Shown here one piece after another: positions 13,348 through 35,683 of a stretch of 63,684 nucleotides of DNA. The DNA is taken from assembly GCA_944326425.1 (NCBI GenBank), contig CALVDX010000012.1:1-63684 (forward strand), read 5' to 3'. The notes below the pieces were generated by a model. The model was not told the DNA's origin and made no database searches. It saw nothing but the letters and a program-made list of their open reading frames with translations. Position 1 is the first letter of the stretch, and each line of letters opens with the position of its first letter. This DNA is from Candidatus Gastranaerophilales bacterium (lineage in GTDB: Bacteria > Cyanobacteriota > Vampirovibrionia > Gastranaerophilales > Gastranaerophilaceae). Both the position numbers and the translations under genes were made by a program.

Positions 13348-16300
13348 CAAGCTCATCATAATTGTAATAGTCAATAACTCCGTCAACAATAGAGTTAATT
13401 ATATCATTGCCAAGATTACCGAAAACTATATTACGCACCTCATTATTGTTTTTAATATTGCAGTATTCAACCAAAATAGCTGGTTCGTCGGCTGCATGTT
13501 TTTTATCTTTTTTTAGTATCTGAAGCCTGCTGTTATCGACAATCTTAGCCTGAATGCTGTCAACATCCTCGTCATTGGTTTTTAAATCAAGATGATATGT
13601 TATTTCCTTCCTTTTTAAATCTTTTACATTCTGTGCGTTATCAGTATTGATAAACCTATTTAGAATTTTTTGCGCAAGTGTTTTATCATCATTATCTTTA
13701 TTAAAAGCGTAAAGCCGCGGACCGGAGGTTCCCTCGTGGGAATCTGCATGCAGACTGATTTTCATCTCTCCGCCAAAATCATTGAAACTTACCGTATTAA
13801 CTTCACCGGCCGTTAAAATAACCTCGGCCCCCTGCGCCCTGAGTTTATCAATAAGCTGTTTTGCCATATACCTGTTGAGCATCCACTCATCAACCCCTAT
13901 CTCTGTATTTAATGCCCCGGGGTCAAATATGCCGTCTTTTCCCCTTCCATATCCGCCATGACCGGCATTGATAACAATTTTTCTGCCGTTAAGCTTTCCC
14001 TTTCCTGTGGGAGTATAGGGTTCTACCAGAGGAATCACATTTCCGTTATCATCCGTTAGTTTTTCAAGCTGCCTGATATCATCAGGCAATCCGAGTGTTT
14101 TACAAACCTCTCCGCGTATATTCTTTGGTTTAAGATTCCCCGAGATAAGTTCTTTAAAACTTTCAGATATATCGGAAGTACCTATCCACCAAGTCGTAGG
14201 ATTCCAGATTTTTCTATCACGAAACTCTTTATTTACAAGCGCAAGGAACTCTTTCTTCTTATCCTCGTCTAATTGATAATTTTTATCCAGAAGATTAAAG
14301 AGTTTCATAATTTCAGCCTTGCAAACGGATCTATCATTTTCGGCTTCACAGATTCCTGCCACAATATCATTAGAGCGTAAAACTTCAAGTACATTGTCTC
14401 CTTTAACCCGCTGTATCTGATATTTATACAGCATGGAGTTTAAATCGTCATCCTTATCCAGTGTTCTTGCAAGTTCGCTGCTTATCTCCTGCGGTGAGTC
14501 CGCAAGTATATTATCAAATATTTTTATAATATCAGAATATTCCTCTTCGGAAGCTGCCTGCTCAAAACGTTTAACTATATCTGCATTATTTTCCTCTTTA
14601 TTTAACAGTACATTAAACGAGTGCCTTAAAATATCAAGCCCGCCGGCTTTTTTAATCATTTTAACAAATTTTTTTGTCCCGCCCGAGTTTTGGATTAACT
14701 CTCTTATATTGTTTTCATTAATCTTTTTATCAAGAACAAGCCCTGCAAACTGCCTTGCTTCGGAAGATTCATCAATCGCTGTTTCAATTGCATTATATAA
14801 TTCTTCAGGGGTTTGTGCGTCAAGAACACCGGCCATTGCTCTCATATTATCCGTATCTGTCCACAACCATGAGTTATATTCGTCTCTTGCATCTTTTTTA
14901 AATATTTGCGCGGCTTCCTCCGGTATATTGTAGTACTTAGCGTATTTATCAAAAATTTCTTCTGTCTGCTTTAGCCTTTCCTCATCGCTTAGACCTGATT
15001 TCTTTATTCTCCGGATTTCAGCAGCAAGCGGTTTTTCATTAAACGGCTGCACCGGCGCAGTATGCCCTTTTACAGGCAGATTAATCTCATCTCCCGGATG
15101 AATAGTATAATTCTCTCCAAGGTGTTTGTTTAAAACTGTTAATTCCTTGTAATTAATTCCAAGCTTGCGGGCAATTGACATCAATCCGGTATCACTCTCC
15201 TGAACAATGTATTTAGGATTATTTTCCTCTGCCGGAACAGTATTTTCACCGCCCCACCAGAGGTTTAGTTCCGGTTGCTTTACCTTTTGTTTTGACAAAT
15301 CATAAAATTCATCCACAACCGGCTTAAGGAGTTCCTGTGTCTCTGTATCAGACTCCTTGTATACCATGGCAAGCCGGGCAAGGGAACGTTTGTACAGACC
15401 GTTCATATCTTCACCCGACTTGATCGATTTGGTATAAATAAGTTGTTTAAAGGCATCTGTAAGTCTGCCTTCATCAATTGCAGTCTTAAACCCGCCAATG
15501 TCAATTGCTTCAAAACCCTTGTTATAAACAAGATCAATCAATCCTTCAAGCATAGGCAGTGATAGTTTATTAAAGGTTTCATCGCCTAATTCTATTCTTA
15601 TATCCTCTCTGGTTTGCAAATAGTCTTTCGCAAGCTGCGCATACGCCTCTGCAGGTGTCATTTCACTTTTTGAATTTACACCTTTGGTATACCCGTACCC
15701 TATGGTCCAAACCCCGTTATCATCCTGATAGGACTCTGTGTGGGGTTTATAGTCATTATCCGCATCACCCTCAAATTTTGTAATTACATTAGCAAACTGA
15801 CCGCTCATGCCTGTCGCCGATTTTACATCCGACAGAGTTTCAACACCAGCCGCAGCTTCCGTAACGGACTCAGGGACGGCCAGTTTGTCCCCTTTTTGTA
15901 AAATAACTTCTTTACCGTTTTTTAAAACAGTTATTTTACCGTCTTTATCCTCGCCGATTTCCCATCCGTTTGCAGCAGCAAGCTGTCTTATTGAAACATT
16001 ATTATCATCAGCGATTTTCATCGGACTGTCGCCGGATCTTACGGTATAAAATCCGTCTTGTACCCCTGATTTTCCGGACGTCTTTTTGCCTGACCCTTCA
16101 CTTGAAGGAGGGTTAATATTTACCCGCATACCTTCTGACAGGTTTACCGGCTTTCCGTTTTTCTTTAGTGTTATACTACCCTTATTTTTAATTACCTGCC
16201 AGCCGTTTGCCTCTGCCAGCTGATAAATGGTTATATTGTATTTACGCGCAATAGCAAATGCTGTTTCTCCTCTGGAAACAGTATGGGTTTTAACCGCCTG

Positions 16301-16411
16301 TTCTGCTCCGTAATTAAACAGGGCTTTATTAGGACTGCTTTGTTCTTCCTTTTTAATTTTTAGATTGCGGTTTACTGCTCCGGATCCGCCCGGTCCTTCT
16401 ACTTTTGCCAT
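13337..16411 (-). CDS. Multidomain peptidoglycan hydrolase: LysM, GH24-like lysozyme, Amidase_3
   Basis: A 1024-aa protein with two cell-wall-cutting domains. LysM domains at about 40-100, 120-182 and 402-452 bind peptidoglycan. Residues about 205-350 match T4-type GH24 lysozymes: E214 in 'KFEG', 'WTIGYGYT' and a C-terminal 'LYKRSLARLAMV' region. The last 220 residues are a zinc N-acetylmuramoyl-L-alanine amidase (Amidase_3): 'INAGHGG' with the metal histidine near 816, 'DPGA', a Glu in 'VDEW', 'SLHADSH' and 'AILVEYCNI'. The middle 350 aa are acidic and helical with no known domain. No classical signal peptide is visible, so export is by another route or through lysis. It lies downstream of the giant adhesin gene, same strand, 91 nt apart. 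Confidence 0.85.
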   Translation of the reverse strand: MAKVEGPGGSGAVNRNLKIKKEEQSSPNKALFNYGAEQAVKTHTVSRGETAFAIARKYNITIYQLAEANGWQVIKNKGSITLKKNGKPVNLSEGMRVNINPPSSEGSGKKTSGKSGVQDGFYTVRSGDSPMKIADDNNVSIRQLAAANGWEIGEDKDGKITVLKNGKEVILQKGDKLAVPESVTEAAAGVETLSDVKSATGMSGQFANVITKFEGDADNDYKPHTESYQDDNGVWTIGYGYTKGVNSKSEMTPAEAYAQLAKDYLQTREDIRIELGDETFNKLSLPMLEGLIDLVYNKGFEAIDIGGFKTAIDEGRLTDAFKQLIYTKSIKSGEDMNGLYKRSLARLAMVYKESDTETQELLKPVVDEFYDLSKQKVKQPELNLWWGGENTVPAEENNPKYIVQESDTGLMSIARKLGINYKELTVLNKHLGENYTIHPGDEINLPVKGHTAPVQPFNEKPLAAEIRRIKKSGLSDEERLKQTEEIFDKYAKYYNIPEEAAQIFKKDARDEYNSWLWTDTDNMRAMAGVLDAQTPEELYNAIETAIDESSEARQFAGLVLDKKINENNIRELIQNSGGTKKFVKMIKKAGGLDILRHSFNVLLNKEENNADIVKRFEQAASEEEYSDIIKIFDNILADSPQEISSELARTLDKDDDLNSMLYKYQIQRVKGDNVLEVLRSNDIVAGICEAENDRSVCKAEIMKLFNLLDKNYQLDEDKKKEFLALVNKEFRDRKIWNPTTWWIGTSDISESFKELISGNLKPKNIRGEVCKTLGLPDDIRQLEKLTDDNGNVIPLVEPYTPTGKGKLNGRKIVINAGHGGYGRGKDGIFDPGALNTEIGVDEWMLNRYMAKQLIDKLRAQGAEVILTAGEVNTVSFNDFGGEMKISLHADSHEGTSGPRLYAFNKDNDDKTLAQKILNRFINTDNAQNVKDLKRKEITYHLDLKTNDEDVDSIQAKIVDNSRLQILKKDKKHAADEPAILVEYCNIKNNNEVRNIVFGNLGNDIINSIVDGVIDYYNYDELANL

Positions 16412-16502
16412 TAAACGCTGCTCCGTTCAATCTCTTGTTTTGTTCCGTTAATACATGTATTCCACAGTCGGGGAAAAATATAACATGTGATGTAACAGTT
16501 TT

Positions 16503-19500
16503 TTACATTCTCCAACGGAAGCCAAATTGGAAACCTATACCGTTTCTTCCGCCGCTTCTCAGCATTGTATGCAAATACCCTGTGAAATCATCTGCTATTC
16601 GGCGTTGTAAACCAATTCCATAAAGTACATACGGATCCACGGACATTTCGGGCAGAGCCACTTCATTAGCAGTAAATTTTGTTATATCCATTATATTAGC
16701 TACAACCTGTACATTTATATACGGCTGCCAGCCGTTCTTAAGGTTTCCTATAAGTTTTACCCCCGGAACATATTGAATTGCATGCAGAGGCGAAGCATCA
16801 AGCCTTACGCCTATAGGATTTGTATAATCAAAAGTATTAATAAATGCGTATGAGAGCATAAAGTTTGGCTGAACAACAAATCTGCCGTTTAAAAGTTCCC
16901 AGTTATAGCCGGATTTAATTGCGATGCCGGAATGAAGAGTTGTAATATCCTCTCTGCCGAACATTGTATTTGCCTCTCCGGCCATTGCCCCTACGTTTGC
17001 TGTTATACCCGTGTAAAAATTATCTTTATAAAAGGCAGCAGTACCGCCGAGTAAACCGCCATTCTGATAAATTGATACCCCGTCATAAGTTTGGTGTGAC
17101 CCGTTATAACCGGCATATACTGTATAAACAGCATTAATCCCGTGTTTTAACGGAATTATCGGACTGTCTACACCAAACAGCGAACCATACATTACATTAT
17201 TTACCCTTGGCCCGTTGTCCAGGCGTACACTTTCAAATGTCGAATAAGGACGGAACCACGCTCCTGTATATTGTTCCGGCATTATTCCGGGTAAAAATGC
17301 CAGACTGCCGTCTGATGCAGCATATCTGTTTCTTGTGAGAAGTGCTGTTCTCTCTGATTTTGGAAGCAGCATAAGCATATCCATGTTTCCAAATGCATCA
17401 ATAAGAGAATCTAATTGTACCAGATATGCACCGACCATTGTTGCTACAGGTGCTGCCGTAATTGCAGGGTTGAATGCCTGATAAGAATTCTCTGCGGCAC
17501 AGGTCAGATTAAGGTAGCCGTTATCCGGATCATAGCCTACATTGTACTTATATATAGAACCCCAAATGGTTGATAATGAAGGGTCTAATACAAGACTTTG
17601 TGAAAAAGCATTTTCAGTCGAGGCTATTGGAATATGATTTTCTGCCCGATAACCGTCACTTAAAATATCAAGATATTTAATAGTTAGAGCACTATCCCCC
17701 GTTACCGAATCCGCAGAGAAGAAGTCTCCCGTTTGCGTATCTAAATTTATATCCAGTCCAAGATTTACAGCCCCGTCATTAAGTGTAAGATTACCAAAGT
17801 TTATCGTATCCATTGAGCCGTTTCTTGTATCAAAAGTTGTCCCTCCATGCATGGTCATCGCAGAGACATCAAAGAAAAGAGCATCTTTTGCAAGTCTGAT
17901 ACTACCTTCTGCCAAATTCATATTTCCGGCAAATGTTGTATTATCCCCTTCAAGATACAGTGTTCCGCTGCCGGATTTCGTAAATGTACCATTTCCATGC
18001 AATTTTGTATTTAGTGTTTGAGGCCCGTTAAAATTAAATTCAAGTTCTCCGTTTTCATTTATTGTTGTTTTACCGGAAAAATAATTGTCATCCTTATATT
18101 TTTTCTGATAAAATACTTTCCCTTCATTAATTTCCACATCACCGGTGAATTCCGAATTATCACCCTGTAAATTTAATGTCCCGCTGCCATCCTTGGTCAA
18201 TAAGCCATCACCTTTTATCCGGGCAAGTTGGTTCTCGTTGTTATTAGTAATTGATAAAACCGCATCTTCATTGATTGTAGTTATGCCGTTAAAGAAAGTT
18301 CCGTCGTCTTTATCATTAAAAGCCAGCGTACCTTCAATAATATTTGCATTGCCGGTAAATTTATCATTTTGACCGGTAAGATTAAGAGTTCCATCTCCCG
18401 TTTTTACAAACTCTCCGCCACCGCTTACATTTTTTATGTTGTCTTCCTCTGTATTATTAAAGTTAAGGGTTGAGTTCTGGGCAATATTTGTACTTCCGTT
18501 AAAATAAGACCCGCCTGCAGATTGATTGTAATTAACACCGCCCTCCTCTACATAAAAGCTTCCGTTAAACCCATTATTTTTACCGGTTAATATTAATGTC
18601 TCACCGCCTGTTTTAATGAGCGTTCCGCTGCCATTGATTGTTCCGTTAATTGTATCTTCTGCTGTAGTTTTATAAACGACCGTTCCCTCTGTATTTATAC
18701 TCGTATTAACGTTTAAATAAGATGTATCGTCCGTCTTTTCAAAATATAATGTTCCGCCGTTTACAGCTGCAATACCGGTAAAGTTATTATTTTTTCCGCC
18801 AAGAAACAGTGTTCCCTCATCATTTTTTTCTATTGTTCCGGTTCCGGTAATTCCACTATTAATAACAATTTGCCCTTTGCCATCAAACACAATCCTTCCA
18901 TCAGAGTGAATATCATTAGCCTGATTATTTGCAGTGTTATTGTCAAAATAGACCTGGTTGCCTTCAGTTGCCGTAATTTGCAGCTCTCCCGTATTATAAA
19001 TTGCACCGCCAGAACCTGTTTCTGCTTTATTATTTTCAAAACCGGAATCTGTTATATGCAGACTGCCGGTGTTATAAATTGCACCGCCGTTTTGAACTGC
19101 AGAATTATTTTGCGCAATTGTTTTGTCTATTGAAGTTGTTCCTGTTGTTCCTGCAGCACCGCCATTCACTGCACTGTTAGAATCAAATATAACACTTGTA
19201 AACGATGCATTCCCACCTTCATTATATACTGCCCCGCCATTTCCGGTTTCGGTTTTATTATTATAAAAGTTTGTATTTGTAACCTGAGCACCGGCAGCTT
19301 CGCCTTTTATGTAAAGAGCCGTTCCGTCTGCCCTATTACTGTCCTCATTTATTACAGCATGCTCAATCGTTACATTATTTAAATAAAATTCCCTTTGCTG
19401 CCCATCTTCAGAATCAACATCAAATAGTGTCCAAAGGTGATTTGCTGTAATTATACTTTCATCTTTATCAAGTCCTGTTACGTAAAATTTACCTTCTCCC

Positions 19501-22500
19501 ATTGTTTCAAGATTTGACAGTACACGATAAGGACTATCTGTTTCTGTATCAAAATTAAAATTCCTTATCGGGCTGTTTGATATATGCATTTTTTTGAGGG
19601 TTTCCGCTACCTCATAATCTACTGTAGATATGATAATATTTCCTTCGTTTTCTGACTTTGTAATTTGATATTCATATCCTGAACTTGTTCCCAATTCTAT
19701 CATTCCAAAATCATTCATGGTTATTTGGCCGCCATCTGCTCCGGTTTTGTTTAAAACGTTTATTTCTTTTTTGGTCCATTCACCATTTACAATGACAGAT
19801 ATCTGTTCTACAGTAATGCTTCCGCTTCCGTTAGCGTAATTTACGGTATCAGCAACCGGATCCGGAGTTGTAGGCATATATTGATCTTTGTTATTTTGTA
19901 AATCAAGTTCAAATTTTATTTTGTTATTATCACCCGTAAAGTTAAGATTATTAAAGATCAGGTCATTAATTTTTCCATCTGCCAAATCAAGAGTTGAATT
20001 AACAAAGTCCGCATTAAGAGCGTTACTGCCAAATGAAGATGTATTTTCTCCCATTTTTATTATTGAATTTGAAAAAGTTAATTTTGTATCAGATGCATTT
20101 TGTCCAAATTCTGATAAGGAATTATCCATAACAAATGTTCCGTTATCAAATGCTGCAACATTATTTATACTGCTTGTGAGTATGGGCTGTGTTATGTGTA
20201 TAGTATTAGAACCATTCCCATGAAGCAGAAGCGATGAATTACCGTTGAGGTTTATATTAGGAGTAAAGCTGCTTTCCTCAGAATTCATTTTATAATCCAG
20301 GTTGGCAGTATTTACTTCTTGTCCTTCAATATTAATCTCCTCTGAGTTAAAGAATTTTGAATCCGCATCGGAGAAAACCAATGTTCCGTTATTTATGTCA
20401 ACCGTTCCGGTATAATCACTGTTATCTCCTTTAAGGTTAAGAATCCCGCTGCCATTTTTCACAAATGCGCCGCTTCCGCTTATATCTTTAATCTCTTCGG
20501 TTATTGTGTTAACAAATTCCAGTGATGAATTCTCCGCTATAAATGTTGTCCCGCCAAAATAAGAACCGTTTTGTGATTGTTGATAACTTACATTACCCGA
20601 ATTTATAGCAAAATTTCCGGTATAGCCGCTGTTTTGACCGCTTAGGATAAGATTTTCTGTTCCGTTTTTATTAATTTGACCAATACCTGTAATAACTGCA
20701 TTAACTGAATCCTGAACATTTATATTCAAATTGAGCGTTGTATCTTCTTTTAAGTTAACAGTACCAGTCACAAAACTGTCCGCGGCATCTGTTTTATTGT
20801 ATGAAACTGTTCCCTCTTCTATATTTATCGTTCCCGTGAAAGACTGATTTACTTTGTTAAGATTTAATATACCTTCACCATATTTATTCAAAACTCCGGC
20901 ACCGAGAAGTCCATTCATATTTTCTGTTGTACTGTTATTAAAGTTTAATGTTGTTGTCAAATTTGTACGGCCTGCAAAATATGTTCCGTTTTCACTTTGG
21001 AGGTAATTAACTATACCCTGCTCTATATTAGCAATACCTGTAAAACCTGAATTATTTCCCGTAAGGGTCAAATCAGCATTACCTGTTTTAGTAAATTCTC
21101 CCGTTCCGTCGATTGTACCGGATATGATTTCTTCCGTATCAAGTTGATAAACAAGTTCGCCTTCAGAGTTGATAATAGTATTTGCATCAAAGTAATACTG
21201 ATTTGCATCTGTTTTTTCAAATGTAATTGTGCCGTCATTAATTATAACCGTACCTGTAAAGCCTCTATTATCACCCGTTATAGTTAGATTTTCACTACCA
21301 GTCTTGGTAATTGTCCCGTTTCCATCTATATTTCCGTGAATATTATCTGCGCTTGTTGTATAATATTCAAGATTTGCGGCACTTTCTACAGTTGTCTGAC
21401 CTCCAAAGAATTCCGTAGTATCTGTCTTGTTAAATCTAAGTGTACCTTCTTCAATTACTGCGTTACCCGTGTAGTTATTATTTTGGCCCCCGAGATTGAC
21501 AATACCCGTACCTTTTTTAGTAAAAGCACCCTCTCCGGAAATGTTATTTATGTTGTCATCAGAACTATTTGTATATTCCAAAGAGGCTCCCTCTGCTATT
21601 ATTGTCGAACCGCCAAAATAACTGCCGCCTTCGGACTGGTCATATATAATTGCCCCGGATTGAATATTAACAGCTCCTGCAAACGAAGAATTTGCTCCGG
21701 TAAGCAGTAAGTCAGCATCTCCGGATTTTATAAATGTTCCGTCTCCAGTCAGGTTTTGCGTTCCATTGAAAGTTTCCTGTGCTGCAAGGTTGTATTCAAG
21801 AATTCCATCTTGTTTTATTTCTGTAATTCCCGTTATATAAGAATCATTTTCTGTTAATTTGTTAAATAATATTTTTCCTGAGTTTATGACTGCATCTCCG
21901 GTATATTGGGAATTATCCCCCTGTAAAATTAATAATCCCGCATCATCTTTTATTATAGACCCGGTCCCTGCAATTCCGCCATAAATATTAACAGTACCTT
22001 CACCGGTAAATCTTATACTCCCGCCGTTATTGTAGATATCTTTACCAAGTTCTGCACTGTTATTTTCAAAGATTGTAAATGTATCTTTGTTGGTATTTAA
22101 TGTAAGTTCGCCCGTATTATATATTGCACCGCCGGTATTTGCAGTATTATTGGTGAAAGAAGAGTCTGTAAGTGTAATTTCACCTGTATTATAAAGTGCT
22201 CCGCCATTGTCTGAAGTATTTAAATTAAATGTTACATGCGACATTGTCGCATTATTTGAATTGTTATAGAATGCACCTCCATTTCCGGATGCTTCATTAC
22301 CGGTAAATTCAGATGCAATAATATCGATTACACCACCCTCAGCGTAAATTGCGCCGCCATTTAATGATTTATTCGCTTCAAATATAGTATTGTTAACATT
22401 GAGAGTGCTGTTATCTCCTGTTATATAGACCGCAGCGCCGTTCGTACGTGAAGCAGTTGTATTTTCTTCTGCGCTGGCATTGGCAATTTTGACATTTGAA

Positions 22501-25500
22501 ATGTTCAATATTCTGGAGTCACCGTCAGTAGAATCTACATTAAACAAACTCCAAAGAGTATTCCCTGTAATAACACTATCTGTTTTAGATTGCCCGCTTA
22601 CATTAAACTCACCTTTGCCCATTTCGCCAAGGTTAGATAGTACATAGTATATTGGTTTTCGATTGTGGACAGTAAAACCTCTGTTACCTTCAGCATTATG
22701 CATCATTTTCAGGGTCATAGTACCATCCGGTTCTTCAGTATAATCTACGGTAGAAACCGTTATCCAGCCCTCCGTATCAGCCTTTACAATCTCGTATATG
22801 TAGTCTGTAGAAGTAGCTGAAAGGTATGGATCAAAGTCTTTAATTGTAACGCCGTCACCTGAAACCACCTGTACATCTTTATTTGCCCATTTACCGTCGA
22901 CAATAATCGAAACGTCTTTTATTTCAATTTCTCCGGAGGACCCCTCATCAATTACAAGCCTGTCCGCTTCCGGCGCTTCTCCTTCATCAACAGCCTGATC
23001 TTCATGATTTTTTAAATCTAAATCTATATATAATTTGTTCGCACCCGTAAGAATCAGATTATTATAAATACTGTCTCCTATTTTATCATTCCTCATATCA
23101 ATTGAGGAATTTGTATATTCTGCATTTAGTTGGTTATTTCCAAATGTATCAACCGAGTTTGAAAGCTTTGAGATAGTATTATTAAAGTTGGCAACATTTG
23201 TTTCCCCGGTAAATGAGGCAAGAGAATTTTTGTTAAAGATGTAAGTACCGCCTGTAAAGTTTGCTGTATTATTTTCACCGGAAGTATTTATATTTTCATT
23301 TAATTCAGCACTTACCCCGGAAACAGCAGTTAGGTTCAGTGCGGCATTGCCGTTTAAATTTACAAGCCTGTCAAAAGAAGCATTGTTAGTAAAATTATAA
23401 TCCAGGTTTGATATTTGTACGTCATTAAGGTTATAAATATTTATTGCGGAAGAATTAAAGAAACTTTTATCAACCCTTGATGATGGAGTTGTATAACTCA
23501 GGGTCCCGCCGCTAATCTCAACTGTCCCCGTAAAATCAGACTGATTTCCTTCTACCTCAAGGGTATCATCTCCGCTTTTTATAAAAATTCCCCCGCCCTC
23601 AATCTTAGATGCAAGAGTCTCACCTATGCTTGTATTGAATTCCAGTTCGCTAACAACATTAGTTATTCCGGAAAAATACTCATCAGTCGCTTCATCCTTA
23701 TTATAGATAATACGGCCGTCATTAATAGAAAATGTTCCGGTATAAAGACTGTTATCACCGTTTAATGAAAGAATTTCAGCACCGTATTTATTAAAATCAC
23801 CGGCACCTTGAATGTTCCCGTCAATACTATCCGCCGCAGTAGTTGTATATTCAAGTGACCCGTTTTCTGTAATTATAGTTATACCATCAAGGTAACTGCT
23901 ATTGTTAGTTTTTTCAAATACCAGCTGCCCTTCCTGAATTGTTGCTACGCCTTGAAATCCGCTATTATCTCCCGTAAGTGTAAGAGCCTGCGCTCCGGAT
24001 TTATTTAATGAACCCGTCCCGCTTATATTTCCGTTAATTGTATCCGCATTTGTTGTTATATAGTCAAGCGTTCCATCCTGATTAATAACTGTCTCACCCC
24101 CAAGGTAGGTATTTGTATTAGTTTTTTCAAATAAAATATTTCCTGCATCAATAACCGTTGTTCCATTAAATACAGAGTTATCACCAATTATATTCAGTGT
24201 ATCAGCCCCATCTTTTAAAAGTATCCCCGTCCCGTTAATTTGACCATTTATTGAATCAGAAACAGTTGTAGTATATTGAAGTACTCCGTCTGTATTAATT
24301 GTTGTCGTTCCGTTGAAATATTTTGTTAAATTAGTTTTTTCAAAAGCAATTTTACCGTTATCAATAATTGTATGTCCTGTAAAATTATCATTATTACCGT
24401 TCAGGTAGAGTGTTGCCTCTCCTGTTTTAGTAAAGGTGCCTGTTCCGCTGACTGTATCTGCAAGCTGTTCATCAACCGAAAGATTATATTCAAGTGTGCC
24501 GCTTGAATTAATTAAGGTATTGCCGCCAAAATAAAGGTCCGCATTTTCATCTTTTACAAATTGAAGTTTTCCGTTATCAACAATTGCTTCACCGGAAAAT
24601 CCGCTGTTATTACCTGATAGTGCCAGGGTTTGGGCACCTGTTTTATGGAAAGTGCCGTCACCTGTGAATTCTGCATTAATACTGTCACTAACGGCAGTAT
24701 TATACTCAAATAATGTCCCTGATCCTATATCTGTTATTCCGGTAAAATATTTGTCGTTTACGGAATTCTTATTAAAAACAACCGATCCTTCCGTAATAGC
24801 AGCCGTTCCGCTGAAAGCGCTGTTGTCGCCGGATATACTTAACTGCCCGGCCCCGGATTTTATTAATTCTCCGGTACCGCTTATATTACCCGTAATAGAA
24901 TCTGACGTTTCAAGCCGGTATTCAAGCTGTCCGCCATTTTCAATTACAGTATTACCATCAAAATATTTATCATTAGTATTATTCTTATCAAATAATATTT
25001 TACCGTTTTGAATAACGGTTGTTCCTTCAAATTTGCTGTTATCTTCGGTTATAGTAAGAACTGCTTCTCCGTCTTTCGTAAACGTTCCGGTACCCGAAAC
25101 CGTACCTTTTATTGCATCATCAAGAGATATATTATAATTTAATTCTCCGGTTGCTTCAATATTTGTTGTACCGCCAAGATATTTACTATTTTCGGTATCT
25201 TTATCAAAAACTATTTTGCCGTCTACAATTGTAATTTCACCGGTAAAACCGCTATTATCAGAATCTATTTGTAATGTCGCGCTGCCGTCTTTAATAATAC
25301 TACCGCTTCCAATTATCGATCCTGACATTATTTCGTCCATTTCCAAATCAAATTCAAGGATTGTATAAGGATCAAGTTCGGTTATACCGCCAAAAAATCT
25401 ATCATTCTCCGTATTTTTATCAAAAAGCACAGCCCCTTCGTTTATATTCACTTTTCCGGTATACCCGCTGTTATCACCAATTACCGTTAAAAGGGCGGAG

Positions 25501-28500
25501 CCGTTTTTATTAAAAGTTCCGGTTCCTTTAAGGTTATTGTTTAGGGTTTCTTCCGAATTCAGGTTAAAATCAAGTGAAGCGTTGCTGTCAATTATCGTTG
25601 TACCTCTAAAAAATTTATCATTTACAGAATTTTTATTAAATACAATTTCCCCTTCACTAATCTGCGTCTGTCCGCTAAAAGCGCTGTTATCATCACTTAA
25701 TGTCAAGGTTGCCGAGCCGGTTTTCAGGAAACGGCCATTCCCGGAAACGGCACCCTGTATTACTTCATCTACAGCAGTTGCAAACTGAAGTGTTCCGTTT
25801 TCTTCTATATTTGTATGCCCTCTAAAATAAACATCAGAGTCTGAGTTTTTATCAAATTTCAGAATACCTTCTTCTACAGTAATATTCCCATCAAATGAAG
25901 AATTATCACCGTTTACTGTAAGCACTTGTGTACCGGCCTTTGTAAAAGTACCATTACCTGATATTTGACTTGAGAACGTATCATCATGATTGATTTGGAA
26001 TACAAGTTCCGCGCCGGAATTTATTTCAGTTTTTCCGGTGAAATATTTATCAGATTCACTATTTTTTCTAAAAATTAATCGTCCTTCTTCTATAACAGTA
26101 TCACCACTAAATACACTATTATCCTGCACAAGAGTAACAGAAGCAATCCCCGATTTTATTAAACTTCCGCTGCCGCCGATACGTCCGGTTAAAACTTCAT
26201 CTACTGCTGTATCAAATTCCAGTACTGTTCCTGAATTAACGTTTGTATAACCGCCAAGGAAGCGGTCTGTACTACTGTTTTTATCAAATAAAACTTTTCC
26301 GGTATTAATATTTGTTGTCCCGCTAAATGCACTATTATCACCTACTATTGTAAGAAGTCCGTTATTATTTTTATTAAATGTACCGTTGCCGGCAAGTACA
26401 CTGGTAAGTGTTTCATCTACATTCAGGTTATAATTAAGTACTGCGCCGGAATCTATGGTAGTTGTTCCGCCGAAGAATTTATCAGCAGAAGAATTTTTGT
26501 TAAATGTAATTTGTCCGACACTTATCCTTGTATTTCCCGTAAAACCGCTGTTATCAGAACTTACATTAAGAGTTGAACTGCCGGATTTTAGTATTTTCCC
26601 CGTACCGGATACACTGCCGGTAAGATTTTCCGTACTATTAAGAGCAAATTCAAGTGTTCCGCTTGAATTAACCCGGGTATTACCATTAAAATACCGGTCG
26701 GAAGAAGTGTTTTTGTTAAACCGGAGAGTTCCGTTATTTACGGTTGTTGTACCGCTAAAAGTGCTGTTATCACCATTAAGAGTAAGAGTTGCTGTGCCGG
26801 ATTTTACAAAATTACCATTTCCGGTAAGACTTCCTGATATTGCATCTGCGGCAGCAAGGTCATATTCAAGTGTACCGTTTGAAGTTATGTTTGTTGTTCC
26901 GTTAAAATATTTATCGGAAGAGCTATTTTTATCAAATATGATTCTTCCGGCGTTAATTGTTGTTGTTCCGTTGAAACTGCTGTTGTCTTGTGAAATAGTG
27001 AGATTTGCATTCCCTGATTTAATAATTTGTCCGCTGCCGGCAATTTTTCCCGCAATACTTTCTGCCACTCCGGTATAGAATTCAAGTGATGAACCTGAAT
27101 TAATATTTGTTTGCCCGCTAAAATAGCGATCAGAGGAAGAAGTTTTAGAGAAATAAATTTTTCCGGCATTTATATTTGTTATACCTGTATAACCGCTATT
27201 ATCTCCGGATATTGTTAATGTATTTGCGCCGTATTTATTAAAAGTCCCGGAGCCTCCCGTTAATTTATTATCCAGAGTGTAATCGTTATTAATGTAAAAA
27301 TCAAGACTGGTACCGCTTTGGATACTTGTACTTCCGCTAAAATATTCATCCGAAACAGAATTCCTGTCAAATCTTATTATTCCGTTGTATATTGTAACAT
27401 CACCGTCAAAACCGCTGTTATCACCTTCCAGATACAATGTTGCACTTCCTGTTTTATCAATATAACCGTAGCCGTCTACCTGCCCGTCTAAATCAAGATA
27501 CTGTGCAAGGTTTAATTCTAAAGTTCCGCCTTGTACTGTGACCCCGTTGCCAAAGAAGTTATGACTGCTGTTTCCCTTGTAAAATTCAAGAGTACCATTC
27601 TCAATATATACGTTTCCGGTATAACCGGACATGTCATTTGCCACATACACCGTTCCGGAGGTAGGAAGGCTTGCAGAACCGAAGTTCGTATTTGTATAAT
27701 AACCGCTATCATTAACATAAATAGTTCCGGAGCCCGTCATAGCATCCGTGATATTAAGGTTTCGACTGCCATACGCATTAAGGTAAAGTGTTCCGGTATT
27801 ATGTATCGCGTTTGAACGGGAACCTACTCTGTTACCGCTGATATTAACGGTAGTATCATCAGCCAAAATGTACATAGTTCCGGCATTATATATTGCCCCG
27901 CCGTAAGAAGAAGCCGTATTATTTGTAAGATTTGTGTCTTTAAGTGTTAGTCTTGAGCCTGAATTATTATAGATTGCACCACCTCTGGAGGCACTGTTAG
28001 AGGTAAATGTCGAATCATCAATAGAAGTTATTGTACTTGAACCGGTATTATAAATGGCACCGCCGTATGAAGATGCGGAATTTGATGTAAAACTTGCATT
28101 CAGGGCACTAAATCTGCCGGAAGCTTCATTGTATACAGCACCGCCATTTGATGTTGCGGAATTAGAAGTAAAATTTGTATTTTGTGCGGTTAACCTGCCT
28201 GAACTTCCGTTATATACAGCACCGCCGTTTTGCGCCCTGTTTCCTGCAGAAGATGCACCAAAAACCGAGCTGTTAATTTGTGTTGTCCCGTTTATATTGT
28301 AAACAGCCCCGCCATAAGATGATGCAGAATTTGATGTAAAGTCACTGCCGCTAATATTTGCGGTTGTTCCGCTTAAAGCTACTGCACCGCCATATTGGGC
28401 TGTATTTGAAGCAAAATCGGTATTATTTGATATAGTCAAATCAGAAGCCGCAGAGTGTACTGCCCCTCCGTATGTTCGTGCCGTATTTGAATTAAAATTA

Positions 28501-30995
28501 GTACTTTGGATTGTTACATCGGCATTGTTTGCCATACCTATAGCACCACCGCTTAAATTTGTAGCCTCATTTGAAGTAAATGTTGACCCCTGAATTTCCA
28601 ACTCTCCACCGTGTGATTCTATTGCCCCGTCTGCGTAAGCATGATTGCGGCTGAACTCGGAACCGGTAATAACAACTCTTCCTGAATTTGTATTACTTAT
28701 TGCACCTCCGGTTGTACTTGCAGATGATGATGTATTATTCGGAGTATAGTTATTTGTAAAAGTTGAATTACTTACCGAAATTTCCCCGCCATAATTAAGA
28801 ATAGCACCGCCATCAGCATTTGCCAATGTTGAAGAAGTTGTATAGTTCCCGTCAAAATCAGTATTTGATATTGTTAATTCTCCGGAAGCTGTATTGTATA
28901 TTGCACCACCCGAATTTACCGCTGAATTTCCTGAAAAATACTGCTCATCTATTAACATTGTGGCTTCATTATAAATTGCTCCGCCATAATCAGCCGTATT
29001 ACTGCTTATAGAAGAGAAAATTTGTGTATTTGTCCTCTGCAAATTCAAATCAGAAGCATTATAAATCGCTCCGCCGTATTCCGCCCGGTTTCCTATAAGG
29101 AATGTATCATTTACATTAAGTGTTCCAGCTGTATCTGCATTATAAATCCCGCCCCCATACGTTGCACTGTTATTTGTAACAGAGGCCGCTATACTAAATT
29201 CTTTTGTTGCATTATTATAAACCGCACCGCCATAATCAGCCGTATTTGAAGCAAATGTTGTACTTTCAAGGAAAAGAGAATTCACATTATCTGCCAAATA
29301 TATTCCGCCGCCTTCTCCGGCTTCATTACCGGAAATTGTACTTGATTTAATACTTATATCTCCTCTTCCGTAAATTCCGCCTCCCCTGCCAAATGATGTT
29401 CCATTAACCGTATTATTTGTAATATGAGTGCTGGTTATATCCAGGGTTCCGGCACTATAAATCCCCCCGCCGCCCGCTTCAGCTCCGGTAATTGTGTTAC
29501 CGCTTATTTCTGAATTATTTATTGTTAACTCATTATTAGTTTGACTGGCAATTCCACCGCCTTGCGCCCTGGTTGTTGCATTAATTTCATTGTTATTAAC
29601 CTTGGCATTAGAGAGGCTCATGTCTGTAGCAACCCCCGTGCCTGATGAATATGTAATATGAATTCCACCCCCCTGGCCCCTGCTTGCATTTATGATATTA
29701 TTATTGAATTCAGTACCATTAGCATAAATAATTCCCCCGCCATACGCAGTAAGACCGCCTCCATTTCCATAATCACCCGCCGATACAGTATTAGAACTTA
29801 TAGAACCTCCTGTAATATCCATTCTTAAATCAGATTCCTGATTATATATGGATACCCCGCCCCCTGAACCTGTATCAGATGCATTTATAGTATTTCCTGT
29901 TATTGTATTATCCGGTATGGCAATATTACCCCAAGCCCGGAGACCACCGCCATATACAGCAGTCCCTTCAGCATAGTTATTTGTAATAGTAAGATTAGAC
30001 AGTGTTCCGGAAGGAGGAGCCGGAAATTCCTCTTCAGACCCCAGGCTCATACCACCTCCGGCACTATAACCTGTTCCCTCAATTCTGTTATTGGTAATTG
30101 TTAAGTTGGAAATGTTATAGGAAGGATTTCCCCATAAGCCAATAGCACCTCCTATTTTAGTACCGTTTCCGCTAAGAATATTTCCGCTGTATGTACCGCC
30201 ATTTATTGTGACAATTGTATTATTATTAACAGCCAGTGCCCCGCCGTCAAGCTGTCCACCATTGTTATTTGTGGCTCTATTATTATAAAAATTCACATTA
30301 GTAAAAGTAAGATGCGGAGAAAATGTACCAGGGTGATGCCCTCCGTGCACTACTGCTCCACCGCTCCACGTCCCCTCCGGTGCTTCGTCATTTATTACAT
30401 TATTAGAAAACGTAGAGTTTGTTATAGTTAAATCCCCCGATTGTATATTTACAGCTGATCCGTTTGCTCTTCCGCCCTCATAGTTTGTTGTGTTATTTGA
30501 AAATGTACTATTATCAATAAAAATGTCACCGCCAACAGAAGTAATTGTACCTCTGTACCACGTATTTACGCCGTTTGTAATACTTCCGCTAAAATGAAGC
30601 GTTGCACCGCTTGATACACTAATCCCCGTTTTCCCGTTCATATCAATAGACCCGGAAAGAGTTAAATCACCGGTCATAGTACCGATATTTTCGGTTATAA
30701 CTTCAGTACCGTTTGTAGTATAAGAACGCGGTGAATCTGTAGCGCGGATTGCTTCAAGTACATTGGCATAAGTTCCATTGGCTAGTAATGACGGGGTAAG
30801 CGATTGCAGAGTATAACTCCCGTAAGAAGGAGAGGCGGCATAAATAGAAGAACCTGAAGGCACTCCGAAAGTCCTGTTTAAGCTGCCATATGTTGTAAAT
30901 CCTGCGGTATCTTCGGCAAAAGCGGGCATAGCAATAGAAAGCGCCGCTACCAACGCCGCCGCACTGAGACGCTTATATGAAAAATTACTTTTCAT
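16503..30995 (-). CDS. Giant autotransporter adhesin, 4830 aa
   Basis: One uninterrupted 14.5-kb frame. Residues 1-27 are a Sec signal peptide ending 'AFA'. Residues about 60-1060 are PMP-type beta-helix repeats with dozens of 'GGAIYN' units. From about 1118 to 2500 comes an array of roughly 72-residue autotransporter-associated beta-strand repeats ('GDNSGYTG', 'G.L.F.KN'), about 19 by length. Two further units follow, each with a unique linker, a short GGAIYN block and more of these repeats. Residues about 4562-4830 form the C-terminal beta-barrel that would anchor the passenger in the outer membrane. The last residues are 'FRWRM', not the usual terminal Phe. AAGGAT precedes the ATG. Likely role: adhesion or host interaction at the cell surface; ligand unknown. 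Confidence 0.9.
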   Translation of the reverse strand: MKSNFSYKRLSAAALVAALSIAMPAFAEDTAGFTTYGSLNRTFGVPSGSSIYAASPSYGSYTLQSLTPSLLANGTYANVLEAIRATDSPRSYTTNGTEVITENIGTMTGDLTLSGSIDMNGKTGISVSSGATLHFSGSITNGVNTWYRGTITSVGGDIFIDNSTFSNNTTNYEGGRANGSAVNIQSGDLTITNSTFSNNVINDEAPEGTWSGGAVVHGGHHPGTFSPHLTFTNVNFYNNRATNNNGGQLDGGALAVNNNTIVTINGGTYSGNILSGNGTKIGGAIGLWGNPSYNISNLTITNNRIEGTGYSAGGGMSLGSEEEFPAPPSGTLSNLTITNNYAEGTAVYGGGLRAWGNIAIPDNTITGNTINASDTGSGGGVSIYNQESDLRMDITGGSISSNTVSAGDYGNGGGLTAYGGGIIYANGTEFNNNIINASRGQGGGIHITYSSGTGVATDMSLSNAKVNNNEINATTRAQGGGIASQTNNELTINNSEISGNTITGAEAGGGGIYSAGTLDITSTHITNNTVNGTSFGRGGGIYGRGDISIKSSTISGNEAGEGGGIYLADNVNSLFLESTTFASNTADYGGAVYNNATKEFSIAASVTNNSATYGGGIYNADTAGTLNVNDTFLIGNRAEYGGAIYNASDLNLQRTNTQIFSSISSNTADYGGAIYNEATMLIDEQYFSGNSAVNSGGAIYNTASGELTISNTDFDGNYTTSSTLANADGGAILNYGGEISVSNSTFTNNYTPNNTSSSASTTGGAISNTNSGRVVITGSEFSRNHAYADGAIESHGGELEIQGSTFTSNEATNLSGGAIGMANNADVTIQSTNFNSNTARTYGGAVHSAASDLTISNNTDFASNTAQYGGAVALSGTTANISGSDFTSNSASSYGGAVYNINGTTQINSSVFGASSAGNRAQNGGAVYNGSSGRLTAQNTNFTSNSATSNGGAVYNEASGRFSALNASFTSNSASSYGGAIYNTGSSTITSIDDSTFTSNSASRGGAIYNNSGSRLTLKDTNLTNNTASSYGGAIYNAGTMYILADDTTVNISGNRVGSRSNAIHNTGTLYLNAYGSRNLNITDAMTGSGTIYVNDSGYYTNTNFGSASLPTSGTVYVANDMSGYTGNVYIENGTLEFYKGNSSHNFFGNGVTVQGGTLELNLAQYLDLDGQVDGYGYIDKTGSATLYLEGDNSGFDGDVTIYNGIIRFDRNSVSDEYFSGSTSIQSGTSLDFYINNDYTLDNKLTGGSGTFNKYGANTLTISGDNSGYTGITNINAGKIYFSKTSSSDRYFSGQTNINSGSSLEFYTGVAESIAGKIAGSGQIIKSGNANLTISQDNSSFNGTTTINAGRIIFDKNSSSDKYFNGTTNITSNGTLEYDLAAADAISGSLTGNGNFVKSGTATLTLNGDNSTFSGTTTVNNGTLRFNKNTSSDRYFNGNTRVNSSGTLEFALNSTENLTGSVSGTGKILKSGSSTLNVSSDNSGFTGNTRISVGQITFNKNSSADKFFGGTTTIDSGAVLNYNLNVDETLTSVLAGNGTFNKNNNGLLTIVGDNSAFSGTTNINTGKVLFDKNSSTDRFLGGYTNVNSGTVLEFDTAVDEVLTGRIGGSGSLIKSGIASVTLVQDNSVFSGDTVIEEGRLIFRKNSESDKYFTGKTEINSGAELVFQINHDDTFSSQISGNGTFTKAGTQVLTVNGDNSSFDGNITVEEGILKFDKNSDSDVYFRGHTNIEENGTLQFATAVDEVIQGAVSGNGRFLKTGSATLTLSDDNSAFSGQTQISEGEIVFNKNSVNDKFFRGTTIIDSNASLDFNLNSEETLNNNLKGTGTFNKNGSALLTVIGDNSGYTGKVNINEGAVLFDKNTENDRFFGGITELDPYTILEFDLEMDEIMSGSIIGSGSIIKDGSATLQIDSDNSGFTGEITIVDGKIVFDKDTENSKYLGGTTNIEATGELNYNISLDDAIKGTVSGTGTFTKDGEAVLTITEDNSKFEGTTVIQNGKILFDKNNTNDKYFDGNTVIENGGQLEYRLETSDSITGNISGTGELIKSGAGQLSISGDNSAFSGTAAITEGSVVFNKNSVNDKYFTGITDIGSGTLFEYNTAVSDSINAEFTGDGTFHKTGAQTLALSGNNSGFSGEAIVDNGKLQFVKDENADLYFGGNTLINSSGTLEYNLSVDEQLADTVSGTGTFTKTGEATLYLNGNNDNFTGHTIIDNGKIAFEKTNLTKYFNGTTTINTDGVLQYTTTVSDSINGQINGTGILLKDGADTLNIIGDNSVFNGTTVIDAGNILFEKTNTNTYLGGETVINQDGTLDYITTNADTINGNISGTGSLNKSGAQALTLTGDNSGFQGVATIQEGQLVFEKTNNSSYLDGITIITENGSLEYTTTAADSIDGNIQGAGDFNKYGAEILSLNGDNSLYTGTFSINDGRIIYNKDEATDEYFSGITNVVSELEFNTSIGETLASKIEGGGIFIKSGDDTLEVEGNQSDFTGTVEISGGTLSYTTPSSRVDKSFFNSSAINIYNLNDVQISNLDYNFTNNASFDRLVNLNGNAALNLTAVSGVSAELNENINTSGENNTANFTGGTYIFNKNSLASFTGETNVANFNNTISKLSNSVDTFGNNQLNAEYTNSSIDMRNDKIGDSIYNNLILTGANKLYIDLDLKNHEDQAVDEGEAPEADRLVIDEGSSGEIEIKDVSIIVDGKWANKDVQVVSGDGVTIKDFDPYLSATSTDYIYEIVKADTEGWITVSTVDYTEEPDGTMTLKMMHNAEGNRGFTVHNRKPIYYVLSNLGEMGKGEFNVSGQSKTDSVITGNTLWSLFNVDSTDGDSRILNISNVKIANASAEENTTASRTNGAAVYITGDNSTLNVNNTIFEANKSLNGGAIYAEGGVIDIIASEFTGNEASGNGGAFYNNSNNATMSHVTFNLNTSDNGGALYNTGEITLTDSSFTNNTANTGGAIYNTGELTLNTNKDTFTIFENNSAELGKDIYNNGGSIRFTGEGTVNIYGGIAGTGSIIKDDAGLLILQGDNSQYTGDAVINSGKILFNKLTENDSYITGITEIKQDGILEYNLAAQETFNGTQNLTGDGTFIKSGDADLLLTGANSSFAGAVNIQSGAIIYDQSEGGSYFGGSTIIAEGASLEYTNSSDDNINNISGEGAFTKKGTGIVNLGGQNNNYTGNAVIEEGTLRFNKTDTTEFFGGQTTVESAANLEYYTTSADNIHGNIDGNGTITKTGSENLTITGDNRGFTGTVIINDGTITFEKTDANQYYFDANTIINSEGELVYQLDTEEIISGTIDGTGEFTKTGNADLTLTGNNSGFTGIANIEQGIVNYLQSENGTYFAGRTNLTTTLNFNNSTTENMNGLLGAGVLNKYGEGILNLNKVNQSFTGTINIEEGTVSYNKTDAADSFVTGTVNLKEDTTLNLNINVQDSVNAVITGIGQINKNGTENLILSGQNSGYTGNFAINSGNVSYQQSQNGSYFGGTTFIAENSSLEFVNTITEEIKDISGSGAFVKNGSGILNLKGDNSDYTGTVDINNGTLVFSDADSKFFNSEEINIEGQEVNTANLDYKMNSEESSFTPNINLNGNSSLLLHGNGSNTIHITQPILTSSINNVAAFDNGTFVMDNSLSEFGQNASDTKLTFSNSIIKMGENTSSFGSNALNADFVNSTLDLADGKINDLIFNNLNFTGDNNKIKFELDLQNNKDQYMPTTPDPVADTVNYANGSGSITVEQISVIVNGEWTKKEINVLNKTGADGGQITMNDFGMIELGTSSGYEYQITKSENEGNIIISTVDYEVAETLKKMHISNSPIRNFNFDTETDSPYRVLSNLETMGEGKFYVTGLDKDESIITANHLWTLFDVDSEDGQQREFYLNNVTIEHAVINEDSNRADGTALYIKGEAAGAQVTNTNFYNNKTETGNGGAVYNEGGNASFTSVIFDSNSAVNGGAAGTTGTTSIDKTIAQNNSAVQNGGAIYNTGSLHITDSGFENNKAETGSGGAIYNTGELQITATEGNQVYFDNNTANNQANDIHSDGRIVFDGKGQIVINSGITGTGTIEKNDEGTLFLGGKNNNFTGIAAVNGGTLYFEKTDDTSYLNVNTSINTEGTVVYKTTAEDTINGTINGSGTLIKTGGETLILTGKNNGFNGSFYVEEGGVNYNQSAGGSYFNGSTNIAQNSTLNFNNTEEDNIKNVSGGGEFVKTGDGTLNLTGQNDKFTGNANIIEGTLAFNDKDDGTFFNGITTINEDAVLSITNNNENQLARIKGDGLLTKDGSGTLNLQGDNSEFTGDVEINEGKVFYQKKYKDDNYFSGKTTINENGELEFNFNGPQTLNTKLHGNGTFTKSGSGTLYLEGDNTTFAGNMNLAEGSIRLAKDALFFDVSAMTMHGGTTFDTRNGSMDTINFGNLTLNDGAVNLGLDINLDTQTGDFFSADSVTGDSALTIKYLDILSDGYRAENHIPIASTENAFSQSLVLDPSLSTIWGSIYKYNVGYDPDNGYLNLTCAAENSYQAFNPAITAAPVATMVGAYLVQLDSLIDAFGNMDMLMLLPKSERTALLTRNRYAASDGSLAFLPGIMPEQYTGAWFRPYSTFESVRLDNGPRVNNVMYGSLFGVDSPIIPLKHGINAVYTVYAGYNGSHQTYDGVSIYQNGGLLGGTAAFYKDNFYTGITANVGAMAGEANTMFGREDITTLHSGIAIKSGYNWELLNGRFVVQPNFMLSYAFINTFDYTNPIGVRLDASPLHAIQYVPGVKLIGNLKNGWQPYINVQVVANIMDITKFTANEVALPEMSVDPYVLYGIGLQRRIADDFTGYLHTMLRSGGRNGIGFQFGFRWRM
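16750..27640 (-). repeat. Arrays of about 72-residue (216-bp) repeats within the adhesin
   Basis: In the main array (about 23500-27640) each unit runs from one 'DNS.F.G' to the next in about 72 residues. Shorter arrays of the same family occupy about 20350-21960 and 17900-18830, while the beta-barrel (16503-17310) and linkers are not repetitive. Repetition at DNA level makes assembly collapse or copy-number variation plausible. The span given encloses all arrays; its left edge is approximate and includes non-repeat barrel sequence. Confidence 0.7.
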
Positions 30996-31059
30996 ACTAC
31001 TATCCTTAAAAGACTATGCCACTTAATATCATTTTAATATGGCTTATGCGCTTTTTAAT

Positions 31060-31125
31060 ATCCTATCAATGTAGGATTTATCACGGTTTTAAGGAGTATA
31101 ATATATACCAATACACCGGTATATA
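31060..31125. promoter_or_regulatory. Two inverted repeats upstream of the adhesin gene
   Basis: TATATACC (31102-31109) and GGTATATA (31118-31125) form a perfect 8-bp inverted repeat with an 8-nt spacer, about 110 nt upstream of the adhesin ATG. Nearer the gene, ATCCTA and TAGGAT (about 31060-31077) form a 6-bp inverted repeat. Either could be an operator; no regulator gene is adjacent. The region between the adhesin and the next gene otherwise holds only AT-rich DNA. Confidence 0.4.
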
Positions 31126-31169
31126 CATACAAATACTAATATAGGCAGAATAACACCCAAAAATCCGGT

Positions 31170-31481
31170 TTAATTGTTGATGTTTTTATTATCGTTATTA
31201 TTTTTTTTATCTTCCTGATAGCTTTTTTGTATATTGTGCCCCGCAACCGCGCCGGCTCCTCCGCAAAGCGCTATAGCACCCAGAGTTATCGGCATAAACG
31301 GCGCAGCCAAAACTGAAACTGCAGCAAGATATGCCAAGCCACCCAATGTACCTATTGCAGCACCTTTTAGTCCTTTAAAATTTGTTTGTGAAACAACAGG
31401 ACTGCTTACCTGAACATTCTCATTTTTCTTCACAGAATAATATTTGTTGTAATTTACGTTGGATACAGCATTAATTTTCAT
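31170..31481 (-). CDS. Small FKG-motif membrane protein of unknown function
   Basis: I take the ATG at 31481 ('MKINAVSNVN', 103 aa) because AAAGGGG lies 7 nt upstream; an in-frame start at 31532 lacks a site. The N-terminus carries 'TNFKGLKG' at about residue 34, then a Gly/Ala-rich hydrophobic stretch of about 45 residues ('GTLGGLAYLAAVSVLAAPFMP...') able to form two membrane helices with a glycine hairpin, and a charged Asn/Lys tail. The FKG motif recurs in the tandem paralogues at 58.8-62.0 kb. No function can be assigned. Confidence 0.7.
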   Translation of the reverse strand: MKINAVSNVNYNKYYSVKKNENVQVSSPVVSQTNFKGLKGAAIGTLGGLAYLAAVSVLAAPFMPITLGAIALCGGAGAVAGHNIQKSYQEDKKNNNDNKNINN

Positions 31482-31580
31482 AAAAATACCCCTTTTGTGC
31501 TGCAGTATACCAGAAAAAAGCCGGATTGTCAATTGTTTGGACTAACGCGGGCTATCTTTCAAGACCTGTATTATTTGATG

Positions 31581-31586
31581 TAAAAT
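31581..31586 (+). promoter_or_regulatory. -10 box (TAAAAT) 6 nt before the glycosylase ATG
   Basis: TAAAAT at 31581-31586, 6 nt before the ATG at 31593; TTCAAG at 31558-31563 is a possible weak -35 with 17-nt spacing. No Shine-Dalgarno site. Confidence 0.4.
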
Positions 31587-31592
31587 ACAATT

Positions 31593-32129: not shown

Positions 32130-32200
32130 TTCAGCTTATTTACTTTACACCGTGTATTTTCTACAATATAGCTATAAGAGTATAGAAAGGAGAATTTCCT

Positions 32201-33496: not shown

Positions 33497-33527
33497 CCTG
33501 TTTGGCTAGTTAAAATAATTTAATTCG

Positions 33528-33557
33528 CGGGCGGTAAGGCTTCAGCCTTACCGCCCG
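33528..33557. terminator. Bidirectional hairpin terminator between pgi and the cupin gene
   Basis: A perfect 13-bp GC-rich stem (CGGGCGGTAAGGC against its complement) with a TTCA loop, placed between two convergent genes; AT-rich flanks on both sides, though without long T-runs. Confidence 0.75.
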
Positions 33558-33562
33558 ATTCA

Positions 33563-33928: not shown

Positions 33929-34010
33929 AAACTCTCCTTTCTTTTCTTATCAGGATAAACCTGCCGGAGAGTTTTTTAAATAGCCATAACGGGGGCTCTA
34001 ACGGATAATA

Positions 34011-35634: not shown

Positions 35635-35683
35635 AATATTATGATACAATAATTACATCTTAAGTAAATAGGCAGGAGGACTG

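What the first reader, a model, noticed from the sequence alone, without database searches (positions are those of the whole stretch)
16503..30995. A 4830-aa autotransporter with a duplication at about 1040 residues
Seen: the block linker, 'LWSLFNVDS' strand, short GGAIYN helix and 72-residue repeats recurs as 'LWTLFDVDS' about 1040 residues later (3120 bp apart). Known: PMP repeats and autotransporter-associated repeats form long beta-helices. Inferred: the surface fibre grew by segmental duplication; the length should vary between strains.
Basis: partly seen in the sequence, partly recalled or inferred. Interest (0 to 1): 0.6.

Follow-up and report, generated by a model that had tools for sequence, protein, structure and literature searches.

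The report
Surface fibre of three chained modules
A gut bacterium's giant secreted surface protein is three complete beta-helix rods joined end to end, and each joint carries an old copy of the folding cap that autotransporters normally have only once, next to the membrane pore, which suggests how a very long rod might be folded outside the cell stage by stage.

Summary
The duplication is real. LWSLFNVDS (residue 2814) and LWTLFDVDS (3854) lie exactly 1040 residues apart, and about 460 residues around them align at 41% identity, well beyond repeat-level similarity. The interpretation needs correcting. The "block linker" is two things: (i) an internal copy of the autochaperone-like cap that sits just before the C-terminal barrel (profile comparison E 1.2e-10, controls negative), then (ii) the N-terminal cap of a new beta-helix. 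The protein is therefore three passenger modules in series (N-cap, GGA/FxxN rungs, PATR rungs, C-cap) behind one 12-strand type Va barrel; module 1's N-cap is only weakly supported. The same cap pair recurs, from one copy to twelve or more, in giant autotransporters of Candidatus Gastranaerophilales, and was not found elsewhere in the sampled phylum. The duplication is ancient (51% DNA identity, synonymous sites near saturation). Orthologues keep the PATR counts of modules 2 and 3 (8 and 5); length differs mainly in module 1 (20 PATR repeats against 4) and in rung number. Strain-level variation could not be tested. The most likely mechanism, inferred only, is that each internal cap re-nucleates folding of the helix above it during C-to-N secretion. 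New variant of a known kind.

The parts
30915..30995 (-). Putative signal peptide, residues 1-27 (MKSNFSYKRLSAAALVAALSIAMPAFA)
   Evidence: Seen in the translation; no predictor was run
27816..30584 (-). Module 1: weak N-cap match (residues 138-199) then GGA[IVL]/FxxN beta-helix rungs to residue about 1060
   Evidence: lk2 profile E 0.0014 at 138-199; 29 GGx and 15 FxxN motifs in residues 180-1060
23406..27686 (-). Module 1: array of 20 PATR-type 72-residue repeats (residues 1104-2530)
22701..23405 (-).
22365..22685 (-). Module 2 N-cap with LWSLFNVDS, residues 2771-2877
   Evidence: model m88d85025b5ea, in which a pectin-lyase-like helix starts at model residue about 286
21969..22364 (-). Module 2 GGA rungs, residues 2878-3009
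20283..21968 (-). Module 2: 8 PATR 72-mers, residues 3010-3571
   Evidence: the same number in orthologues L005 and L100
19581..20282 (-). Internal C-cap 2, residues 3572-3805
19251..19568 (-). Module 3 N-cap with LWTLFDVDS, residues 3810-3915
18846..19250 (-). Module 3 GGA rungs, residues 3916-4050
17799..18845 (-). Module 3: 5 PATR 72-mers, residues 4051-4399
   Evidence: the same number in L005, L100 and L101
17496..17861 (-). Terminal C-cap (autochaperone position), residues 4379-4500, overlapping the last PATR
   Evidence: ccap HMM E 2e-37; model residues 1-240 (which also include PATR rungs) match the C-terminal ends of Hap, pertactin, SepA, Hbp, IcsA and Ag43 passengers at Z 13-18
17382..17468 (-). 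Alpha-helix before the barrel (pore helix), residues 4510-4538
   Evidence: AlphaFold2 model H249-277
16512..17435 (-). C-terminal translocator barrel of 12 strands (HMM region, residues 4521-4828, overlaps the pore helix)
   Evidence: NalP, EspP and AIDA-I barrels at Z 30-31, Foldseek E about 1e-13
31504..31532 (-). Promoter-like site TTGACA-17-TATACT with TG, about 509 nt upstream of the start codon
   Evidence: consensus match only, no more sites than in shuffles

Best explanation
The gene encodes a type Va (classical) autotransporter whose passenger is three beta-helical modules in series. Each module runs N-cap, GGA/FxxN (PMP-like) rungs, PATR rungs, autochaperone-like C-cap; module 1's N-cap is only weakly supported. 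Shown here: the module order, the homology of internal and pre-barrel caps, the barrel fold in a predicted model, and the recurrence of the plan in relatives. Inferred: the chain threads through the single barrel with its C-terminus leading. The pre-barrel cap folds first and templates the PATR and GGA rungs above it. Growth of the helix stops at the N-cap, where beta-stacking is interrupted. The internal C-cap then emerges and starts the next helix, so folding proceeds in relay. The product is probably a rod tens of nanometres long that acts in adhesion or surface contact.
For: The same query against PATR, N-cap or column-shuffled caps gives prob 1% or less. Cap and N-cap HMMs have no hits in reversed ORFs and at most one (E 0.006) in shuffled ORFs. 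73 of 80 N-caps start within 120 residues after a C-cap, usually 12-46, against 15.5 expected for random positions. Of 130 C-caps, 72 are followed by an N-cap and 45 by the barrel. AlphaFold2 gives 12 barrel strands after a helix and a beta-helix (mean pLDDT 85.8), matching NalP, EspP and AIDA-I. The region before the barrel matches the autochaperone-bearing ends of Hap, pertactin, Hbp and IcsA (autochaperone positions from PMC5767081). The linker model ends one helix and starts a pectin-lyase-like one at model residue about 286. Autochaperone-promoted folding and proposed C-to-N vectorial folding are described for classical autotransporters (PMC8151025; PMC5767081).
Against: No experiment shows that the internal caps nucleate folding; they may only end one helix and start the next. 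The barrel has no Pfam autotransporter-barrel match, so the type Va assignment rests on a predicted structure. Module 1's own N-cap matches only weakly (E 0.0014). 13 of 130 C-caps have neither N-cap nor barrel after them. TamB was not found in this genome.
Confidence: 0.6

Rival explanations
1. The internal caps are only structural ends. The C-cap closes one helix and the N-cap opens the next, giving hinges and protecting edges from aggregation; folding is driven entirely by the pre-barrel cap and the barrel.
For: Anatomy and homology are the same as in the best explanation. Pectin-lyase-like helices generally carry caps (general knowledge; the module 2 helix matches them).
Against: Specific homology to the autochaperone-position cap is more than a generic end cap needs. 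A break in beta-stacking should otherwise stall templated folding (inference).
Confidence: 0.3
2. One reading: the fibre grew by a recent or ongoing segmental duplication of about 1040 residues, so block number varies between strains.
For: The blocks are homologous and evenly spaced. A clade of the window's two linkers is not formally rejected (p-AU 0.118). Module number differs widely among paralogous giants.
Against: 51% DNA identity, with fourfold-site identity near chance. Orthologues in other genera have the same module order, and the lineage carrying G025 had both linkers before it split (p-AU 8e-6). Length differences among orthologues lie in module 1 repeats and rungs.
Confidence: 0.07
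3. The linker is an unrelated spacer or a ligand-binding domain, and its resemblance to the pre-barrel cap is convergence or compositional bias of Asn/Gly/Thr-rich sequence.
For: The protein is 12.7% Gly, 12.0% Asn and 11.3% Thr.
Against: Reversed, locally shuffled and column-shuffled controls give no comparable match, and position in the protein is far from random.
Confidence: 0.03

Closest known systems
Classical type Va autotransporters (NalP, EspP, AIDA-I; T5aSS)
   Same: C-terminal 12-strand barrel with preceding helix, beta-helical passenger, cap at the autochaperone position
   Different: Barrel not recognised by Pfam; passenger about 4500 aa with internal cap copies; host is a non-photosynthetic cyanobacterial relative
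Autochaperone type 1 domain (Rojas-Lopez et al. 2018, PMC5767081)
   Same: About 110 residues just before the translocator; model matches Hap, pertactin, Hbp and IcsA ends
   Different: That survey places it toward the passenger C-terminus; here two further homologous copies lie inside the passenger, and relatives have from one to twelve or more module joints
Chlamydial polymorphic membrane proteins (Pmp; PMC10715098)
   Same: GGA[IVL] and FxxN rungs in the N-terminal part of each module, with an autotransporter plan
   Different: No match to the Pmp Pfam family; joined to PATR arrays and repeated as modules
ShdA/AIDA-like PATR adhesins and variable-length 'periscope' proteins (PMC9704523)
   Same: PATR / TIGR02601 repeats
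   Different: Repeats here are diverged in DNA (mean 52% within array 1, maximum 64%), so strain-level expansion and contraction by recombination is not expected

Membership tests
Type Va autotransporter | C-terminal 12-strand translocator barrel with a preceding helix | tested here: met
   AlphaFold2 model of residues 4262-4830: helix, then 12 strands; NalP Z 31.5 over 268 aa at 1.8 A, EspP Z 30, AIDA-I Z 29.6. By sequence alone Pfam gives no autotransporter-barrel match in 19 members; one has a weak Pertactin match.
Type Va autotransporter | N-terminal Sec signal peptide | tested here: inconclusive
   Typical charged-hydrophobic-AFA sequence seen in the translation; no predictor run
Type Va autotransporter | Passenger on the same chain, secreted to the surface | not testable with these tools
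   Same chain: yes. Secretion needs an experiment. Two Omp85 genes are present.
Autochaperone type 1 domain, pre-barrel copy | About 110 residues ending shortly before the translocator, fold as in pertactin/Hap/Hbp/IcsA | tested here: met
   HMM region 4379-4500 just before the barrel at 4521; fold match over model residues 1-240, which also cover PATR rungs
Autochaperone type 1 domain, internal copies | Homology to the pre-barrel copy | tested here: met
   Profile comparison E 1.2e-10, controls negative
Autochaperone type 1 domain, internal copies | Promotes folding of the helix N-terminal to it | not testable with these tools
   Needs deletion and folding assays
PATR repeat (PF12951, TIGR02601) | Score over the curated cut-off | tested here: met
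   350.6 bits against 27, 27 stretches; 420.5 bits against 19.85, 31 stretches
Chlamydial Pmp repeat family (Pfam PF02415) | Match to the family model | tested here: not met
   No match at E up to 1; the GGA and FxxN motifs are present, so the rungs are called PMP-like only
Periscope (variable-length repeat) protein | Tandem repeats of high DNA identity | tested here: not met
   72-mer repeats at most 64% identical in DNA

The most novel reading that the evidence does not exclude
Gastranaerophilales secrete giant modular passengers by relay: each internal autochaperone-like cap restarts folding outside the cell, which removes the usual limit on what one barrel can export. Relatives with four to six modules, and an open frame of about 12,800 aa with at least twelve N-caps, would mark the upper end.
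Probability: 0.45. Interest if true: 0.72.

Novelty: new variant of a known kind. Interest (0 to 1): 0.55.

Why it matters
It is debated what drives a long passenger outward and how folding is kept in order outside the cell. A natural series of proteins with from one to twelve or more internal cap/N-cap joints, in one bacterial order, makes the nucleation role of the autochaperone testable by counting and deleting caps. It also shows that the gut Gastranaerophilales, whose surface biology is little studied (no paper in the held library mentions both Gastranaerophilales and autotransporters), carry large autotransporter repertoires (7 barrel matches in this genome).

Tried and rejected
Whole-protein self-BLAST returned only the identity diagonal and was uninformative; diagonal scoring and local alignment replaced it. 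The first pre-barrel HMM contained PATR and matched every repeat; it was rebuilt without PATR. A genome-contig scan with a single linker found no confirmed relative, and a single-sequence search found only one relative genome with it; a four-row profile found many. Searches of PDB sequences found only chance ubiquitin matches for the linker and none for the C-terminus. Recent duplication was rejected on DNA divergence. The tree of linkers groups first with first and second with second copies, but weakly (74/85), so no strong claim is built on it. Orthology at the same locus: genus mates lack the gene at the flanking junctions where these could be read, so position could not be used. No RNA family was found in the 509-nt leader. 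The structure comparison list for the linker model barely tests its first 267 residues, so the fold of the internal C-cap itself was not established by structure, only by sequence profile.

Full report
OBSERVATION. The ORF at 16503-30995 (-) is one open frame of 4830 codons. The two motifs sit at residues 2814 and 3854, 1040 apart. A local alignment of residues 2604-3471 with 3641-4519 scores 1416 against at most 230 for 50 shuffles, and its first roughly 350 residues are free of the 72-residue repeats. The finding is confirmed.

ANATOMY. PATR repeats (PF12951, 350.6 bits; TIGR02601, 420.5 bits) form three arrays of 20, 8 and 5 copies of about 72 residues. A stretch of GGA/FxxN rungs precedes each array. 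Between arrays lie segments of nearly equal length: 543 and 544 residues from the start of the last 72-mer of one array to the start of the first of the next. The C-terminus (residues 4262-4830) was modelled by AlphaFold2 from 19 sequences: beta-helix, an alpha-helix, then 12 strands (mean pLDDT 85.8). Its nearest solved structures are NalP, EspP and AIDA-I translocators. Residues 1-240 of that model, which include the last PATR rungs and the pre-barrel cap, match the ends of the Hap, pertactin, SepA, Hbp, IcsA and Ag43 passengers (Z 13-18). For IcsA, Hbp, pertactin and Hap these are the stretches where the autochaperone was defined (PMC5767081).

WHAT THE LINKER IS. Its first half, without any PATR, was compared as a four-sequence profile with the pre-barrel region of 48 autotransporters: probability 97%, E 1.2e-10 over 138 columns. 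The same query against the PATR profile, the N-cap profile and three column-shuffled versions gave probabilities of 1% or less. Its second half is an N-cap. In the linker model (mean pLDDT 88.6) a pectin-lyase-like helix starts at model residue about 286 (window residue about 2752), and many solved beta-helices align there from near the start of their own chain or domain. The linker is therefore the end of one helix plus the start of the next. An HMM of the second half also matches near the protein's own N-terminus, weakly (E 0.0014), and the iterated N-cap HMM matches near the N-termini of four other giants (E 2e-4 to 9e-4).

RECURRENCE. A four-row linker profile finds matches in 50 of 383 genomes of the family. 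In an even sample of 386 genomes of the phylum, all 27 matching genomes are in the same family except one in the same order. Named records place the barrel mainly in Candidatus Gastranaerophilales / Melainabacteria. Domain maps show internal C-cap/N-cap pairs one to five times in most giant proteins, with a last C-cap before the barrel. Over all loci, 73 of 80 N-caps follow a C-cap closely against 15.5 expected by chance, and 117 of 130 C-caps are followed by an N-cap or the barrel. Reversed ORFs give no hits to any of these HMMs, and shuffled ORFs one marginal hit.

HISTORY. The closest relatives are in other genera (G025 = L005, G125 = L100, G330 = L101; all three are cut by contig ends). 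PATR counts per module are 20/8/5 in the window, 4/8/5 in G025, 4/8/5 in G125, and at least 3 then 5 in G330. Modules 2 and 3 are thus conserved in PATR number, while module 1 has gained 16 repeats here or lost them in the others. The two window blocks are 41% identical in protein and 51% in DNA. At fourfold-degenerate positions with a shared amino acid the third base agrees in 39% of 82 sites, against 29% expected from composition, and in 28% in the C-cap half. PATR repeats are at most 64% identical in DNA. A tree groups first linkers together and second linkers together, weakly (74/85); a G025-only origin of its two linkers is rejected (p-AU 7.6e-6), a window-only origin is not (p 0.118). 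The duplication is old. Genus mates carry the neighbouring genes but not this one where the junctions could be read, and the full linker was not found in them, so the gene is accessory within the genus. Strain-level data are not held.

MECHANISM. [quoted passage not shown] PMC5767081). Shown here: copies of the cap from that position exist at each module joint. Inferred: templated helix growth would stop at each N-cap, and the next internal C-cap would restart it. The simplest rival is that the caps only close helix ends. Both predict the same anatomy; only deletion experiments separate them. A rough estimate of length, from about 24 residues and 0.48 nm per rung, is about 90 nm for a fully helical passenger (my estimate, not computed by a tool). 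Function as an adhesin is inferred from the company of PATR and Pmp-like proteins.

LIMITS. The type Va assignment rests on structure prediction, as Pfam gives no barrel match. No signal-peptide predictor was run. The structural comparison did not test the internal C-cap alone. TamB was not detected in this genome, and only borderline matches occur in some relatives; Omp85 is present twice.

Noticed in passing
window 39003-46369: Low-GC stretch (25% at 39-42 kb) with an Eco57I-type restriction-modification protein, a tyrosine integrase and a DUF3854/DUF3987 protein; probably an integrated element.
   Followed up: partly
window 13337-16411 (-): A 1024-aa protein joining LysM domains, a phage-type lysozyme and an Amidase_3 domain lies 91 bp downstream of the autotransporter on the same strand; genus mates have it without the autotransporter.
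   Followed up: partly
L112, L113, L117 (G135:C9): An open frame of about 12,800 aa with at least twelve N-caps; barrel pieces follow in other frames at the contig end, so it is frameshifted in this assembly (error or decay).
   Followed up: partly
G000 genome: No TamB match although two Omp85 proteins are present; relatives show only borderline TamB matches.
   Followed up: partly
window 30996-31532: A near-consensus promoter (TTGACA, 17 nt, TATACT, extended -10) about 509 nt upstream of the start codon suggests a long leader; no Rfam match.
   Followed up: no
window 11700-16430 and 31580-37540: Gene order is rearranged relative to genus mates: the phosphoglucomutase-amidase pair lies on the other side of the glucose-6-phosphate isomerase segment.
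   Followed up: no
window 58814-62015: Two adjacent genes of 527 and 535 aa that look related to each other by eye, with no Pfam match.
   Followed up: no
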